Of a stretch of 64,000 nucleotides of DNA, positions 20,185-46,903 are shown piece by piece. A program made the translations under genes and the position numbers. The stretch comes from Dissulfurispira thermophila. GTDB lineage: Bacteria; Nitrospirota; Thermodesulfovibrionia; Thermodesulfovibrionales; Dissulfurispiraceae. The stretch covers positions 1,860,001-1,924,000 of the forward strand of contig NZ_AP022873.1 of NCBI RefSeq assembly GCF_014701235.1. Direction: 5' to 3'. Position 1 is the stretch's first letter, and every line of letters starts with the position of its first letter. The notes below the pieces were generated by a model that saw only the letters and a program-made list of their open reading frames with translations, did not search any database and was not told where the DNA came from.

Positions 20185-21093
20185 TTATGCCCTTTTCCAT
20201 CTTCTATGTATCCACAGCCATTCTGATGGGTGTTGTTCTATATAATCTTCGATAAATTCAGAAAATCTCTTTGTATCCTCTATCAAAGCCTTTTCAACAT
20301 CCTCTTTTTCTGACAATATAACCTCGGGATAGATATTGATGACATGCTTATGTGCATTAGGTTCATCAAGGCGGTTAATGAATATAGGAATTACTGCAGC
20401 ACCTGTCTTTCTTGCCATCAACGCTGGCATCTTTGATGTCCATGCTGGTCTGCCCAAAAAATCTATTTTATATCCTTCATCCTTTAAAACAGCCTGGTCC
20501 ATCAATATCCCAATCCCCCTGTTTTTCTTTAACTCTCGCATCATGCCTTTTAGTGCACCCTTTTTATAAATCACATTGTTCCCATATCTTGCCCTCACAT
20601 TCTCTATAAGCCTATTAAGATATATATTATCCTGTGTGCGGGCTACAACAGAGACATTATCAACCTTTACACCAAAGACAAGTGCCATTAATTCCCAGTT
20701 GCCACAGTGACCAGTTATGAATATCACACCTTTGTTTTTTGATTTTGCATTCAGATAGTTATCAATGCCTCTAATCTCTACATTATCAATGATGCCTTTG
20801 CCATAACCCCAATAAATTTTAATAATCTCTGCAAAAGACCTGCCGAGATTCTTGAAAGTCTCACGAGCTATACTGACTGCAATTGTTCTATTACTAACTG
20901 CTAATGGCGTAAGCTTGTTAGCATATGTCTTTTTTATATTTTCAATAGCAATCTTCCTTCTATCCTGCCATATATAAAAAACTAAAAGGCCGAGGATTTC
21001 CCCGACCTTTAATGCCAATCTGTGCGGAAGTATTGCAAGAGGAAAAGAAAAAGCAATAATAAGAGAAGTCGTAAATAGCCATCTAATCTTCAT
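20185..21093 (-). CDS. LpxL/HtrB-family lipid A acyltransferase
   Basis: The 302-aa protein has an N-terminal membrane anchor. It shows the acyltransferase motif ITGHCGNWELMALVFG (HX4E, about residues 128-143), GIGILMDQAV and PSEWLWIHRRWK at the C-terminus. It is a late acyltransferase adding a secondary acyl chain to lipid A. Which position or chain it uses cannot be told from sequence. It lies directly downstream of the Lon-like gene and upstream of mlaE, consistent with an envelope-lipid gene set. Confidence 0.9.
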   Translation of the reverse strand: MKIRWLFTTSLIIAFSFPLAILPHRLALKVGEILGLLVFYIWQDRRKIAIENIKKTYANKLTPLAVSNRTIAVSIARETFKNLGRSFAEIIKIYWGYGKGIIDNVEIRGIDNYLNAKSKNKGVIFITGHCGNWELMALVFGVKVDNVSVVARTQDNIYLNRLIENVRARYGNNVIYKKGALKGMMRELKKNRGIGILMDQAVLKDEGYKIDFLGRPAWTSKMPALMARKTGAAVIPIFINRLDEPNAHKHVINIYPEVILSEKEDVEKALIEDTKRFSEFIEDYIEQHPSEWLWIHRRWKRA

Positions 21094-23531
21094 TTATTAT
21101 TTGCGTTATTGTCTCCTTCTTTTTTCTCTGCTGCCTTTTCTTCTTCTTTTTCTTTTTTCTTCTCAAGTGCTTCTGATATTTCCTCAAGCCTCTTCATTAC
21201 AAGATAATTTATTGTGCCTTCAGGGTATGTGCCGTCCTCTCTCTGCACACCCGCAGACATGCCCGTGAGTATTTCAAGCCCCTCCTCCATTTTTTCGATA
21301 GGGTATATGAAAAATTTGTTGTCCTTTACAGCATCAACAACCTCCTGCCTGAGCATAAGGTGTTTTATATTCCTTTTGGGAATTATCACACCATGCCCAT
21401 CAAGCCCTCTAACCTTGCATAAATCAAAGAAACCTTCTATCTTTTCATTTACACCACCTATTGGCTGGACATCACCATTTTGGTCCATAGAGCCTGTCAC
21501 AGCGATATTCTGCTTTAAAGGCACCCCTGAGATGCTACTTAAAAGTGCATAAAGCTCTGCGCATGTAGCACTGTCACCCTCTACCATCTCGTAAAGCTGC
21601 TCAAAGGTTATAGATGCAGAAAGACTTATAGGCCTTTTTGTTGCATATTTACTGCCGAGATAGCTTGATATAATCATGATTGCCTTTTCATGAATCTTTC
21701 CGCTCATCTTTGTCTCGCGCTCTATATTTACAACCCCAGCCTTTCCTGTGTATGTCCTTGCAGTTATCCTCGAAGGCTTTCCAAAGCTGTAATCTCCTAA
21801 ATCTAATACCGCAAGACCATTAACCTGTCCAACCTTTTCCCCATCTGTCTCTACTATAAGTGTATCTTCCAGTATCATTTCCCTAATACGCTCTTCAATT
21901 CTGTTTGCCCTGTAAATCTTCTCTTCAATAGCCTTTGTCACATGTTCTGCCTTTACAATATTGCTTCCTGCATTTTTCGCCCAGTAGTGTGCTTCCCTTA
22001 TAATGTCTGCTATATAACTGAATTTTGTTGAAAGCTTGTCCTGATGCTCTGCAAGCCTTGAACCGTATTCCACAATCTTTGCCACCCCGCTTCTATCAAA
22101 TGGCAAGAGGTTTTCTTCCTTCTGACAACTTGCTACAAAAAATGCATATTTCTCTATGTTCTCATTCGTCCTTGGCATCCTGCTGTCAAAATCAGCCTTT
22201 ACCTTGAACAATTCCTTATATTCTTCATCAAGGTTATACAATAAATAATAAAGATATGGATTGCCCACAAGTATAACCTTCACATCAAGAGGTATTGGCT
22301 CAGGTTTCAGTGCTGTTGTGCTTAAAAGCCTATATTGTTCCCATACATCTTCTATTTTTATCTCTTTGTTTTTTATTGACCTCTTCAATGCATCATAAGA
22401 AAATATATTCCTTAAAAGGTCAAGGGCATTTATTACTATGTATCCACCGTTTGCCCTATGTAGCGAACCTGCCTTTATCATAGAGAAATCTGTCAATGCC
22501 ATCCCATACTGAACCTTATATTCTATCCTCCCAAATAGATTTAGATAAGTAGGATTACTCTCAAAAACAACTGGAGCGCCTTTGCAGTCAGCATTATTGA
22601 CAATCACATTCACAGTGTATCTCACAAATGATACCTCTGGTTTAGGCATCTTCATAAAAGGCAGAGGTGGAGCCTGTTCTTCGGTTATTTTGAAATCATC
22701 CAGATGTGAAAGTATGTCTTCTTTTACTGCATCGAGATATGCAACTATCTTCTCATACCCCTTATATTTCTCCTTCAGTTCTTCTATAAAATGTCCTACA
22801 GCAGCAAGGGCAATCTCCCTTTCGAGCCGCGACAGCATGTCTTTTACAAGCTTTTCTGCTTCACGCACTGCCCGAACAACATCATCCAGTTTTTCCTGAA
22901 GCATCTTGCCTATCTCTTCAACCTTTTTCCTTGTCTTTTCATCAAGAGCAGCAAACTCTTCTTCTGTAAGTGGCTCTCCGTTCTTTTTTATAGGGACAAT
23001 TAAAAGTCCTGTTACAGCCTTTCTTATTGCAAAGCCCTTAGCCATGGCATCTTCTTCAAGGCTCGTGAAAAGTGACTTCTGTTTTTGCTGAAATTCCTCA
23101 AGTATCTTGCTTCGCTGCTTTTCATATTCTTTAGATTCAAAAGCCTTTGGTATCTCAATCCTCAAGTTCTTTATAAGGGTATCCATATCCTTCTGAAAGA
23201 CAACTCCTTTGCCGGGATCAAGAGATACAGCAAGCGGATTATCAGGATCTTTGAAGTTATAGACATAACACCAGTCACTTGGGACACTTTCCTTTGATGC
23301 CCGCTCATTCAACAATGTCCTTATTGTCCTCATCTTGCCTGTGCCGCTTTCACCAAGCACATATATATTAAAGCCCTTGCTTATAAGCCCCAGGCCAAAA
23401 TCAAGTGACCTCAAAGCCCTTTCCTGCCCTATTGTTCCTTCAAACTTGCCAATATCATCTGTTGTATCAAATCGAAATATACTTAAATCACAACACTTGT
23501 AAAGCTCTTCAGGTCTTAGTTTCATTACCAT
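21090..23531 (-). CDS. Lon-like ATP-dependent protease (AAA_32 / LonB-type)
   Basis: This is an 813-aa protein. The N-terminal region carries Walker A GESGTGK (residues 60-66), and a helical insertion follows. The C-terminal Lon protease domain has the catalytic Ser in EGDSATCAELYALLS (near residue 656) and the catalytic Lys in GGVNEKIEGF (near residue 699). A charged Glu/Lys tail ends the protein. It lacks the Lon substrate-binding N-domain, which is typical of the soluble AAA_32/Lon-like group whose substrates are poorly known. GGAGGTAAGAC precedes the ATG at 23531. Confidence 0.9.
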   Translation of the reverse strand: MVMKLRPEELYKCCDLSIFRFDTTDDIGKFEGTIGQERALRSLDFGLGLISKGFNIYVLGESGTGKMRTIRTLLNERASKESVPSDWCYVYNFKDPDNPLAVSLDPGKGVVFQKDMDTLIKNLRIEIPKAFESKEYEKQRSKILEEFQQKQKSLFTSLEEDAMAKGFAIRKAVTGLLIVPIKKNGEPLTEEEFAALDEKTRKKVEEIGKMLQEKLDDVVRAVREAEKLVKDMLSRLEREIALAAVGHFIEELKEKYKGYEKIVAYLDAVKEDILSHLDDFKITEEQAPPLPFMKMPKPEVSFVRYTVNVIVNNADCKGAPVVFESNPTYLNLFGRIEYKVQYGMALTDFSMIKAGSLHRANGGYIVINALDLLRNIFSYDALKRSIKNKEIKIEDVWEQYRLLSTTALKPEPIPLDVKVILVGNPYLYYLLYNLDEEYKELFKVKADFDSRMPRTNENIEKYAFFVASCQKEENLLPFDRSGVAKIVEYGSRLAEHQDKLSTKFSYIADIIREAHYWAKNAGSNIVKAEHVTKAIEEKIYRANRIEERIREMILEDTLIVETDGEKVGQVNGLAVLDLGDYSFGKPSRITARTYTGKAGVVNIERETKMSGKIHEKAIMIISSYLGSKYATKRPISLSASITFEQLYEMVEGDSATCAELYALLSSISGVPLKQNIAVTGSMDQNGDVQPIGGVNEKIEGFFDLCKVRGLDGHGVIIPKRNIKHLMLRQEVVDAVKDNKFFIYPIEKMEEGLEILTGMSAGVQREDGTYPEGTINYLVMKRLEEISEALEKKKEKEEEKAAEKKEGDNNANNK

Positions 23532-39595: not shown

Positions 39596-39693
39596 GGGAG
39601 TGCATGGGGTTCTGGTGTCCCCCACGGACTTCAAATCCGGTGTTGCCGCCCAAAAGGTGGCATGGTGGGTTCGATTCCCACACGCTCCCGCCA
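39596..39693 (+). tRNA. selC: tRNA-Sec (anticodon TCA)
   Basis: The 98-nt gene has encoded CCA. The acceptor GGGAGTG pairs with the 3' strand CGCTCCC, and there is a long D stem (ATGGGG with CCCC). The anticodon arm CGGACTTCAAATCCG carries TCA. A long variable arm (GCCGCC with GGTGGC) and the T arm GTGGGTTCGATTCCCAC complete it. The extended acceptor, big variable arm and UCA anticodon are diagnostic of bacterial selenocysteine tRNA. It decodes UGA in selenoproteins such as the peroxiredoxin at 44745. No selA, selB or selD gene is in the window. Confidence 0.95.
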
Positions 39694-44074: not shown

Positions 44075-44479
44075 ATGGAAAAATATAGAGAGATAGGCTT
44101 GAAACTCACGCCTCAGAGGCTTGCAATCCTCAACTATCTTGATGGCAACAAGGAACATCCTTCAGCAGAAGACATCTACAAGGCAGTTTCAAAAAAGTTT
44201 CCTATGATGTCTTTTGCAACTGTTTATAACACACTGGAGACATTAAGACAGAGAGGCAGTCTCATAGAACTCACGATTGACCCTGACAAAAAGAGATTTG
44301 ATCCAAATACAAAACCTCACCACCATCTGATATGTGTTAAATGCAAAAAGATCGTGGATATATACGGTGACTATAAGTTACCCATCTCCAATAGTGATAA
44401 AGAGGGTTTTGAGATAATCGGTAATCATATAGAGTTTTATGGCATATGTTTGAAATGTAAAAAAGGAGGAGGTGAGTAA
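44075..44479 (+). CDS. perR: Fur-family peroxide regulator (PerR-like)
   Basis: The 134-aa protein has a winged helix (KLTPQRLAILNYL, MSFATVYNTLETLRQRG) and a C-terminal dimer domain. That domain has the metal site DPNTKPHHHLICVKCKK and the structural zinc CX2C pairs (CVKC and CLKC). The sequence FDPNTKPHHH resembles PerR more than Fur. It is followed by the RCKP protein, a Sec-peroxiredoxin and superoxide reductase, so it probably controls this peroxide and superoxide defence cluster. PerR versus Fur is inferred from context. Confidence 0.87.
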   Translation: MEKYREIGLKLTPQRLAILNYLDGNKEHPSAEDIYKAVSKKFPMMSFATVYNTLETLRQRGSLIELTIDPDKKRFDPNTKPHHHLICVKCKKIVDIYGDYKLPISNSDKEGFEIIGNHIEFYGICLKCKKGGGE

Positions 44480-44480
44480 A

Positions 44481-44585
44481 GTGGCAGTCTTTAAATGCAG
44501 TAAATGCGGCACAACAAAAGAAGGCAGATGCAAGCCGCAGAAATGTCCAAAGTGCGGTGAAAAAGGAACGATGCTGAAATCATAA
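44481..44585 (+). CDS. RCKP-type mini-rubredoxin (34 aa)
   Basis: The ORF starts at a GTG directly after the perR stop and encodes VFKCSKCGTTKEGRCKP, then QKCPKCGEKGTMLKS. The RCKPQKCPKC pattern is that of the RCKP-type rubrerythrin-like domain. Two CX2C pairs would bind one iron (or zinc). GGAGG lies about 11 bases before the GTG. It probably serves as an electron carrier for peroxide or superoxide reduction. Confidence 0.8.
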   Translation: MAVFKCSKCGTTKEGRCKPQKCPKCGEKGTMLKS

Positions 44586-44628: not shown

Positions 44629-44717
44629 TAGGGTTTCACAAAATTAAAAAATTCCCTCTCACCTTTGGGGAGAGGGATAGTGTGAGGGATAAGGATTACG
44701 AATTTCGTTAAACCCAC
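44629..44717. mobile_element. MITE-like element, copy 2 (89 bp)
   Basis: The inverted ends are TAGGGTTTCACAAAATT and, read inward from the right, GTGGGTTTAACGAAATT. A 9-bp direct repeat AATTAAAAT flanks it (44620-44628 and 44718-44726). The inner CCCTCTCACCTTTGGGGAGAGGG hairpin matches, in reverse, the right part of copy 1 at 39190-39396. It lies between the RCKP ORF and the Sec-peroxiredoxin. No ORF is inside, so a transposase elsewhere in the genome would have moved it. Confidence 0.75.
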
Positions 44718-44744: not shown

Positions 44745-45362
44745 ATGAGTGAAATTTGCTGTGGATTAAGGGTTGGACAAGATGTCCCAGATTTTAAAAT
44801 CGAGACATTCGAGCCTACAAAAGGTGACTTTGGAGAGATAAGCCTTGAGACACTAAAGGCAGACAAAAAATGGACAATACTTTTCTTTTATCCCGCTGCT
44901 TTTACATTTGTTTGAGCCACTGAATTTGCTGCTCTGGCAGAGCAGTATGACAGATTCAAAAAGATGGGTGCAGAGATTATAACTGTAAGCACAGATACAA
45001 AATTTGTCCAGCTTGCATGGCAGAGAGAAGAAAAGATGCTAAAAGATGTAAAATACCCTATGGGTGCAGACCCCACAGGAAAACTATCAAAGATGTTTGG
45101 CGTGTACGATGAAGATACAGGTCTTGCATTGAGAGGGACATTTATAATCAGCCCTAAAGGAAAGTTGTTAAATTCTGAGGTCAACTTCTATAATATGGGA
45201 AGAAATATTGACGAACTCATGAGAAAGTTCAAGGCAAACCTTCACCTTTCAAAACATGCTGCAGAAGGATGTCCGGCAAAATGGAAAGACGAAGGAGACA
45301 AGACCCTCACACCTTCTCCTCAAATGGTTGGAAAGGTATATGAGGCATACGAAGGCAAATAA
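44745..45362 (+). CDS. prxU: Selenocysteine-containing peroxiredoxin (AhpC/Prx1 type)
   Basis: The frame from the ATG at 44745 runs to a TAA at 45362 with a single in-frame TGA at codon 57 (44913-44915). Translation gives FFYPAAFTFV-U-ATEF. The UGA replaces the peroxidatic Cys in the PXXXTXXC motif of 2-Cys peroxiredoxins. The rest is intact: GTFIISPKGKLLNSEV, a C-terminal EGCPAKW resolving Cys, and TLTPSPQMVGKVYEAYEGK. Length 205 aa is normal. A hairpin fit for a bacterial SECIS lies just after the UGA and tRNA-Sec is 5 kb away. SD AGGAGG is present. It reduces hydroperoxides, with electrons probably from the rubredoxin-like proteins nearby. Confidence 0.92.
44913..44946 (+). promoter_or_regulatory. 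UGA-Sec codon and SECIS-like hairpin
   Basis: After the TGA (44913-44915), GCTGCTC-TGGCA-GAGCAGT (44928-44946) forms a 7-bp stem with one G-U pair and a 5-base loop containing GG. The loop lies about 20 bases after the UGA, within the window required for SelB binding to bacterial SECIS elements. No conventional gene feature explains this stem. Confidence 0.75.
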
Positions 45363-45399
45363 TATAGCGGGGCATTAGCCCTGCCAATAATCAACATGA

Positions 45400-45426
45400 C
45401 CCCAGAAAGTCGTAAGACTTTCTGGG
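45400..45426. repeat. Dispersed palindrome copy (intergenic)
   Basis: CCCCAGAAAGTC-GTAA-GACTTTCTGGG lies between the Sec-peroxiredoxin stop and the SD of the superoxide reductase gene. Its left arm and inverted right arm are the same as in the copy inside mqnD (31766). No T-run follows. Confidence 0.85.
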
Positions 45427-45445
45427 ATGCAAAAAGGAGGCAGAA

Positions 45446-45820
45446 ATGACAAAGAGACTGCAAATTTACAAATGCGAGATCTGCGGTAACATAGTTGAGA
45501 TGCTCCATGAAGGTATTGGGCAATTAGTGTGCTGTGGTCAGCCTATGAAGCTGAATGAAGAAAACACAGTAGATGCATCAAAAGAAAAACATGTCCCTTT
45601 AGTAGAAAAGATAGAGGGCGGTTTTAGAGTAAAGGTTGGCAGTGTTCCTCATCCAATGGAAGAAAAGCATTACATCGAATGGATAGAGGTCATAGCAGAT
45701 GGAAAGGCTTATCGCCAATTTTTAAAGCCAGGTGATGCACCAGAAGCTGTTTTCATGATTGATGCATCAGCAATCACAGCAAGAGAATACTGCAATTTAC
45801 ATGGGCTCTGGAAGGCTTAA
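45446..45820 (+). CDS. dfx: Desulfoferrodoxin (2Fe superoxide reductase)
   Basis: The 124-aa protein has an N-terminal desulforedoxin domain ([13 protein letters not shown] and CCGQPM, about residues 8-33, Fe(Cys)4). The C-terminal SOR domain has the catalytic Fe(His)4Cys site: [17 protein letters not shown] and [10 protein letters not shown]. It reduces superoxide to peroxide in the cytoplasm without making oxygen, which suits anaerobes. The peroxide is then removed by the upstream peroxiredoxin or by rubrerythrin. SD AAGGAGG. Confidence 0.96.
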
Positions 45821-46264: not shown

Positions 46265-46450
46265 ATGACAGAAATAACACAGAAAACAAAAGAATATGTA
46301 TGCCAGTTATGTGGATATATCTACAATCCCCAAAAGGGAGACAAAAAAAACAAGATACCGCCTGGAATTCCATTTGAGGAATTGCCTGATGATTATACTT
46401 GCCCGCTCTGCGGGGCAATAAAAGCAAGGTTTGCACCAATGTTGGATTGA
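46265..46450 (+). CDS. Rubredoxin
   Basis: This is a 61-aa one-iron electron carrier with [16 protein letters not shown] (about residues 11-26) and [18 protein letters not shown]. The four Cys, the Gly-Tyr and the Asp-Asp-Tyr-Thr are all as in classic rubredoxins. It would give electrons to superoxide reductase, the flavodiiron protein and rubrerythrin encoded around it. Confidence 0.96.
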
Positions 46451-46459
46451 GGAGGAAAT

Positions 46460-46903
46460 ATGTGCATAGCATATGAGATGAGATGCCAATGTGGCAGTAA
46501 AACAGCAAGCTTTCATTTTAAAGATAACATTATGACCGAACACGTAATAAAGACACTTTATTGTCCAAATTGTTCATCTGACATAAATGTTAACCCTGAA
46601 AAGATGATTGTTGACAATGGATGGGTTATTGAATACGATATGGATATAGCAAAATTTATGGGACAAAAGATTTCTAATGCACACATTACACCTGATATTC
46701 TATTTGATGAAGGTTACTGTACATGGAATGGCATTTATCCCGGAGACCACATAGACAGCTTAAAAGAGCGAGAAGGCATTACTGCTCTTGCAAAAACTAA
46801 TCCATTAATGTATCTCAATAAAATGAAGTCATGGGCAAAAGAAAGGACAGAGAGATTAAAAAATGAAGGATGGAGAAAGGCAAAAATTGGAAGTAAATCA
46901 TAA
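46460..46903 (+). CDS. Unknown protein with N-terminal zinc-ribbon-like cysteines (147 aa)
   Basis: The protein starts MCIAYEMRCQCGSKTASFHF and has TLYCPNCSSDINVNPEKMIV, so CXC and CX2C pairs could hold one metal. The rest (VIEYDMDIAKFMGQKISNAH, MYLNKMKSWAKERTERLK) is not recognised. There is no signal peptide. It follows rubredoxin by 9 bp with a strong GAGGAGG SD and is co-transcribed with the ROS genes. Its position between rubredoxin and ferritin suggests a metal or redox role, but no function can be assigned. Confidence 0.82.
   Translation: MCIAYEMRCQCGSKTASFHFKDNIMTEHVIKTLYCPNCSSDINVNPEKMIVDNGWVIEYDMDIAKFMGQKISNAHITPDILFDEGYCTWNGIYPGDHIDSLKEREGITALAKTNPLMYLNKMKSWAKERTERLKNEGWRKAKIGSKS

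What the first reader, a model, noticed from the sequence alone, without database searches (positions are those of the whole stretch)
44745..45362. Selenocysteine peroxiredoxin read through an in-frame UGA
Codon 57 is TGA exactly where the peroxidatic Cys of the PXXXTXXC motif should be. Both flanks are intact Prx sequence in the same frame, and a 7-bp hairpin with its loop about 20 bases after the UGA fits a bacterial SECIS. tRNA-Sec is in the same window. Sec-peroxiredoxins (PrxU) are known from a few anaerobes such as Eubacterium acidaminophilum. Here one sits in a PerR-headed operon with RCKP mini-rubredoxin and superoxide reductase, giving a complete superoxide-to-water route with a selenoenzyme. 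Automatic annotation would truncate or split it.
Basis: partly seen in the sequence, partly recalled or inferred. Interest (0 to 1): 0.8.

Follow-up and report, generated by a model that had tools for sequence, protein, structure and literature searches.

The report
Selenocysteine AhpC-type peroxiredoxin gene
The stop codon inside this peroxide-detoxifying enzyme gene is almost certainly read as the rare amino acid selenocysteine at the reactive site; such enzymes are a known kind, but this one belongs to a widespread branch distinct from the textbook example PrxU, and it is easily misannotated.

Summary
Confirmed. TGA at 44913-44915 lies in frame in a 205-aa peroxiredoxin (44745-45362), exactly at the peroxidatic position (P50xxxT54xxU57). 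The genome, one 2.37-Mb contig, has selA, selB, tRNA-Sec and selD; selD and a formate dehydrogenase also carry an internal TGA. Of 110 related loci, 103 carry TGA at this codon. All 91 distinct Sec homologues keep a hairpin 20 nt downstream, nearly invariant at silent sites and with compensatory changes. Cys homologues lose it even where the peptide is unchanged. So the UGA is a conserved Sec codon, not a pseudogene or sequencing error.

The interpretation needs two corrections. The protein is not a PrxU: it scores 180 bits against PrxU's cut-off of 270, is about 43% identical to Nitrospirota proteins that pass (also TGA), and keeps the AhpC resolving Cys176 that those lack. It belongs to a Sec-AhpC subfamily spread over about nine phyla, with Cys members nested inside. 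Sec-peroxiredoxins are also not rare: 78 organisms were listed in 2016. The PerR/rubredoxin/superoxide-reductase setting is real, but we saw it only in Nitrospirota. Most likely function: thiol-dependent Sec peroxidase forming an intersubunit selenylsulfide. No enzymology or proteomics was done.

The parts
44745..45362 (+). Sec-AhpC: 205-aa typical 2-Cys peroxiredoxin with Sec57 and resolving Cys176
   Evidence: translation with TGA=U; PF00578 124 bits; AhpC structures 5b8a/1yf1 E about 1e-44; alignment of 21 relatives
44913..44915 (+). in-frame UGA, codon 57, at the peroxidatic position
   Evidence: TGA in 103 of 110 aligned homologous loci, TGT/TGC in the other 7
44929..44945 (+). bacterial SECIS apical hairpin CTGCTCT-GGC-AGAGCAG (a G-U wobble at 44928-44946 extends it)
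   Evidence: fold z = -2.6; 88-91 of 91 distinct Sec homologues keep each core pair, with compensatory changes; broken in Cys homologues
39596..39693 (+). tRNA-Sec (selC), anticodon UCA
   Evidence: ARAGORN; RF01852 65.4 bits against a gathering score of 47
44075..44479 (+). Fur/PerR-family regulator, first gene of the cluster
   Evidence: PF01475; best NCBIfam match is a PerR model, 131 bits, below its 180-bit cut-off
44481..44585 (+). RCKP-type mini-rubredoxin, 34 aa
   Evidence: NF045720 66.6 bits against a cut-off of 45
45446..45820 (+). desulfoferrodoxin (superoxide reductase)
   Evidence: TIGR00320 220.7 bits against 146.9; PF01880 and PF06397
45845..49477 (+). rest of the oxidative-stress cluster: hemerythrin, rubredoxin, 147-aa unknown, ferritin-like, flavodiiron protein, rubrerythrin
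   Evidence: Pfam; kept in part in several Nitrospirota loci

Best explanation
The gene encodes a selenocysteine-containing AhpC-type (typical 2-Cys) peroxiredoxin. SelB, with Sec-tRNA made by SelA and SelD, binds the hairpin just after UGA57 and inserts Sec. The Sec57 selenolate reduces H2O2 or organic peroxides. The resulting selenenic acid is attacked by Cys176 of the partner subunit to give a selenylsulfide, which a thioredoxin-type or AhpF-like reductase reduces. In this Nitrospirota lineage it sits behind a PerR-like regulator and next to a superoxide reductase, so it probably removes the H2O2 that the superoxide reductase makes. Shown here: codon, frame, conservation of UGA, conservation and covariation of the hairpin, Sec machinery, both active-site residues, gene context. 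Inferred: actual Sec insertion, peroxidase chemistry, the selenylsulfide, the reductant and PerR control.
For: UGA at the peroxidatic position in 103 of 110 related loci, Cys codons in the other 7, no other residue. Third positions of codons +6 to +10 after UGA have entropy 0-0.16 bits over 91 distinct Sec sequences from about nine phyla, against 1.0-1.9 bits at codons +1 to +4. The core pairs form in 88-91 of 91 with compensatory changes (C-G to A-T, T-A to C-G), and most of those pairs are lost in Cys homologues. L017/L049 encode the same peptide ATEFAALAEQ with other codons and no hairpin. selB 378 bits, selA 630 bits, and selD with its own TGA, all in the same genome; FdhA with TGA. In the phylum SelB occurs in 53 of 55 genomes with the TGA form and 16 of 29 with a Cys form (Fisher p = 7e-6, not corrected for kinship); the two exceptions have a tRNA-Sec over the gathering score. 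Resolving Cys176 in every homologue that reaches it. Context.
Against: No direct evidence of Sec insertion or activity. A minority of close relatives use Cys, so Sec is not essential to the family. Outside Nitrospirota the stress-gene neighbourhood is not kept. No AhpF over the curated cut-off exists in the genome (best 303 of 502.9 bits), so the reductant is unknown. The hairpin is not backed by a measured SelB affinity.
Confidence: 0.95

Rival explanations
1. Pseudogene or sequencing error: TGT or TGC became TGA and the protein is truncated at residue 56.
For: In the standard code the gene falls into ORFs of 56 and 132 aa.
Against: The same TGA in 103 of 110 homologous loci, mostly from independent assemblies; intact frame on both sides; a conserved hairpin under silent-site constraint.
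Confidence: 0.01
2. It is an orthologue of PrxU of Eubacterium acidaminophilum.
For: Same superfamily and same local motif FTFVUATE.
Against: 179.8 bits against the PrxU cut-off of 270; about 43% identity to a Nitrospirota protein that passes it; those examined lack the resolving Cys; on the tree PrxU is separated from this clade by several Cys lineages.
Confidence: 0.04
3. The UGA is read by another route (suppressor tRNA, Trp or another residue), not as Sec.
For: None found.
Against: The position alternates only with Cys codons; tRNA-Sec, SelA, SelB and SelD are present; SECIS conserved; a neighbouring gene, the rubredoxin at 46265-46450, ends in TGA as an ordinary stop.
Confidence: 0.01

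Closest known systems
PrxU (NF040737; Sec-peroxiredoxin first described in Eubacterium acidaminophilum, Soehling et al. 2001, cited in PMC13188914)
   Same: AhpC/TSA family; Sec at the peroxidatic position in FTFVUATE; hairpin just downstream
   Different: Below the PrxU cut-off; about 43% identical; has resolving Cys176 (GCPAKWK) where Nitrospirota PrxU reads TPSGW; different SECIS sequence
AhpC, alkyl hydroperoxide reductase subunit C (TIGR03137)
   Same: Full-length homology, same active-site motif and same resolving Cys
   Different: Sec for Cys and Ala for Pro after it (UATE for CPTE); 196 bits against the equivalog cut-off of 272
Sec-containing AhpC of Blastococcus saxobsidens (PMC5330540)
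   Same: AhpC with Sec followed by a bacterial SECIS
Sec-'Prx', TxxU family of selenoproteome surveys (COG1225/PF00578; PMC9312934, PMC5029168)
   Same: TxxU peroxiredoxins, the same functional kind
   Different: The review's example is filed under Bcp (COG1225), a different peroxiredoxin subfamily; some survey members may nevertheless belong to the clade described here

Membership tests
bacterial selenoprotein | in-frame UGA at a conserved redox Cys position | tested here: met
   UGA alternates only with TGT/TGC
bacterial selenoprotein | SECIS hairpin just downstream, with G in the first two loop positions | tested here: met
   loop GGC starting 20 nt after UGA; covariation and silent-site constraint. 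The consensus rule (loop 16-37 nt after UGA, early G) is from memory
bacterial selenoprotein | selA, selB, selC, selD in the genome | tested here: met
bacterial selenoprotein | Sec demonstrated in the protein | not testable with these tools
   needs mass spectrometry or 75Se labelling
AhpC/Prx1 typical 2-Cys peroxiredoxin | PxxxTxxC/U motif and catalytic Arg | tested here: met
   P50, T54, position 57 and R130 invariant in alignment A1; that R130 is the catalytic Arg is an assignment from general knowledge
AhpC/Prx1 typical 2-Cys peroxiredoxin | C-terminal resolving Cys | tested here: met
   C176 aligned to the CPAKWK of AhpC; present in every homologue reaching that column
AhpC equivalog TIGR03137 | score over the curated cut-off | tested here: not met
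   196.1 against 272 bits
PrxU equivalog NF040737 | score over the curated cut-off | tested here: not met
   179.8 against 270 bits; true members score 368-426

The most novel reading that the evidence does not exclude
Sec entered typical 2-Cys peroxiredoxins at least twice: once in PrxU, which in Nitrospirota lacks the resolving Cys, and once in this separate Sec-AhpC lineage, which keeps it. Both times the CPTE motif became UATE. The Sec-AhpC lineage spread over many phyla with an almost frozen SECIS, and reverted to Cys several times in Nitrospirota, leaving the alanine behind as a scar.
Probability: 0.55. Interest if true: 0.5.

Novelty: new member of a known kind. Interest (0 to 1): 0.42.

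Why it matters
It points to a widespread Sec-AhpC subfamily that no NCBIfam equivalog covers, so its genes are prone to be split into a 56-aa and a 132-aa fragment and the organisms wrongly scored as lacking a peroxiredoxin. Natural Sec and Cys members that differ little, and a SECIS legible from silent sites, make it a good system for asking what Sec buys a peroxidase and how Sec is gained and lost.

Tried and rejected
Pseudogene or error: rejected by conservation. PrxU membership: rejected by score, resolving Cys and tree. Conserved partner genes outside Nitrospirota: none found in 2.5-kb flanks beyond scattered Fur/PerR-like genes. AhpF as partner: no hit over the cut-off; a 547-aa AhpF-like protein at genome 909707-911269 is a candidate only. 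AlphaFold of the single sequence: useless (mean pLDDT 36), not used; the fold rests on homology. Literature on this clade: searches found Sec-Prx in general and one Sec-AhpC in Blastococcus, nothing on this lineage or setting; most subscription papers are not held.

Full report
Observation. The reading frame 44745-45362 (+) is open except for one TGA at 44913-44915, codon 57. Read as Sec it gives a 205-aa protein matching PF00578 at 124 bits and AhpC chains of solved structures at E about 1e-44. Position 57 falls on the peroxidatic Cys of 'FTFVCPTE', and Cys176 on the resolving Cys of 'CPAKWK'. In the standard code the gene splits into 56 aa and, from an internal ATG at 44964, 132 aa.

SECIS. 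The RNA after the UGA folds into CTGCTCT-GGC-AGAGCAG (44929-44945), loop starting 20 nt after the UGA (z = -2.6). Synonymous redraws of the same peptide give a stem this long in 0.45% of cases. Alone that is modest; the comparison is decisive. In 91 distinct Sec homologues the seven core pairs form in 88-91 of 91, with compensatory C-G to A-T and T-A to C-G changes, and third codon positions of codons +6 to +10 are frozen (entropy 0-0.16 bits) while codons +1 to +4 vary freely. In Cys homologues most of these pairs are lost, including L017/L049, whose peptide ATEFAALAEQ is the same.

Genome. The window is part of a single 2,370,875-base contig rated 100% complete. selB is at 2120847-2122691, selA at 20716-22071, selD at 665512-666426 with its own internal TGA, tRNA-Sec in the window at 39596-39693, and a formate dehydrogenase with an internal TGA at 1180011-1182014. 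Across 296 genomes of the phylum, 53 of 55 with the TGA form and 16 of 29 with a Cys form have SelB (tallied by hand from the tables, Fisher p = 7e-6, kinship not corrected). The two TGA genomes without a SelB match, G215 and G038, do have a tRNA-Sec over the gathering score.

What family. It is neither an AhpC equivalog (196 against 272 bits) nor a PrxU (180 against 270), and the same held for three other Sec members and two Cys relatives scored individually. PrxU proper exists in the same phylum, in 12 of 296 genomes, always with a TGA, but the four examined lack the resolving Cys (TPSGW). In a tree of 112 proteins the Sec-AhpC sequences and the seven Cys sequences with 'CATE' form one group (98% SH-aLRT); Cys 'CPTE' sequences lie between it and PrxU. 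Holding all Sec rows as a clade without the CATE-Cys rows costs 52.7 log-likelihood units (p-AU 0.035; a reduced set, and the group was named after seeing the tree). The simplest reading is two gains of Sec and several reversions to Cys that keep the alanine; direction is inferred, not proven. An earlier survey (PMC1794560) listed five Cys-to-Sec and no Sec-to-Cys changes for Prx. Named Sec loci come from Nitrospirota, Planctomycetota, Acidobacteriota, Krumholzibacteriota, Rokuibacteriota, Methylomirabilota, Myxococcota, Binatota and one Bipolaricaulota; nearly all are metagenome bins, so single assignments may be wrong.

Context. Upstream lie a Fur/PerR-family regulator and an RCKP mini-rubredoxin; downstream desulfoferrodoxin, hemerythrin, rubredoxin, a ferritin-like protein, a flavodiiron protein and rubrerythrin. 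Parts of this set accompany the gene, Sec or Cys, in many Nitrospirota loci, but not in the other phyla. PerR control is inferred from position and family; the regulator is below the curated PerR cut-offs.

Mechanism. From established peroxiredoxin chemistry (general knowledge; PMC8533274 for Sec in peroxidases): Sec57 selenolate attacks the peroxide, Cys176 of the partner subunit forms a selenylsulfide, and a thiol reductant closes the cycle. The superoxide reductase encoded by the next gene makes H2O2, which this enzyme and rubrerythrin could remove. None of these steps was measured.

Novelty. Sec-peroxiredoxins are an established kind (PMC5029168: 91 proteins in 78 organisms; PMC2398784: 253 in ocean metagenomes) and a Sec-AhpC has been reported in Blastococcus (PMC5330540). 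What appears undescribed in the papers held is this separate, widespread Sec-AhpC lineage with its frozen SECIS and its setting in a stress-gene cluster. Earlier surveys may have counted some members under 'Prx'.

Noticed in passing
44629-44708: The gap between the RCKP gene and the peroxiredoxin holds a dispersed repeat of up to about 80 bp; 32 further, mostly partial copies (81-97% identical) lie elsewhere in the genome, on both strands.
   Followed up: partly
45367-45427: Two strong hairpins between the peroxiredoxin and desulfoferrodoxin genes, one with an 11-bp stem (CCCAGAAAGTC-GTAA-GACTTTCTGGG) and no U run on the + strand; z = -6.0. Possible processing or partial-termination element.
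   Followed up: partly
46460-46903: 147-aa protein with no Pfam or NCBIfam match, kept beside the stress cluster in many Nitrospirota loci at 48-82% identity.
   Followed up: no
L040:4001-4621: An 89% identical Sec copy in a bin labelled Candidatus Acetothermia, without the stress-gene neighbours; recent transfer or misbinning.
   Followed up: no
L137, L138, L139 (genomes G032, G182, G225): SelB-positive genomes that carry the CPTE-Cys form beside a PerR-like gene, in one case (L137) also with superoxide reductase and rubredoxin: natural Cys counterparts in a similar setting.
   Followed up: partly
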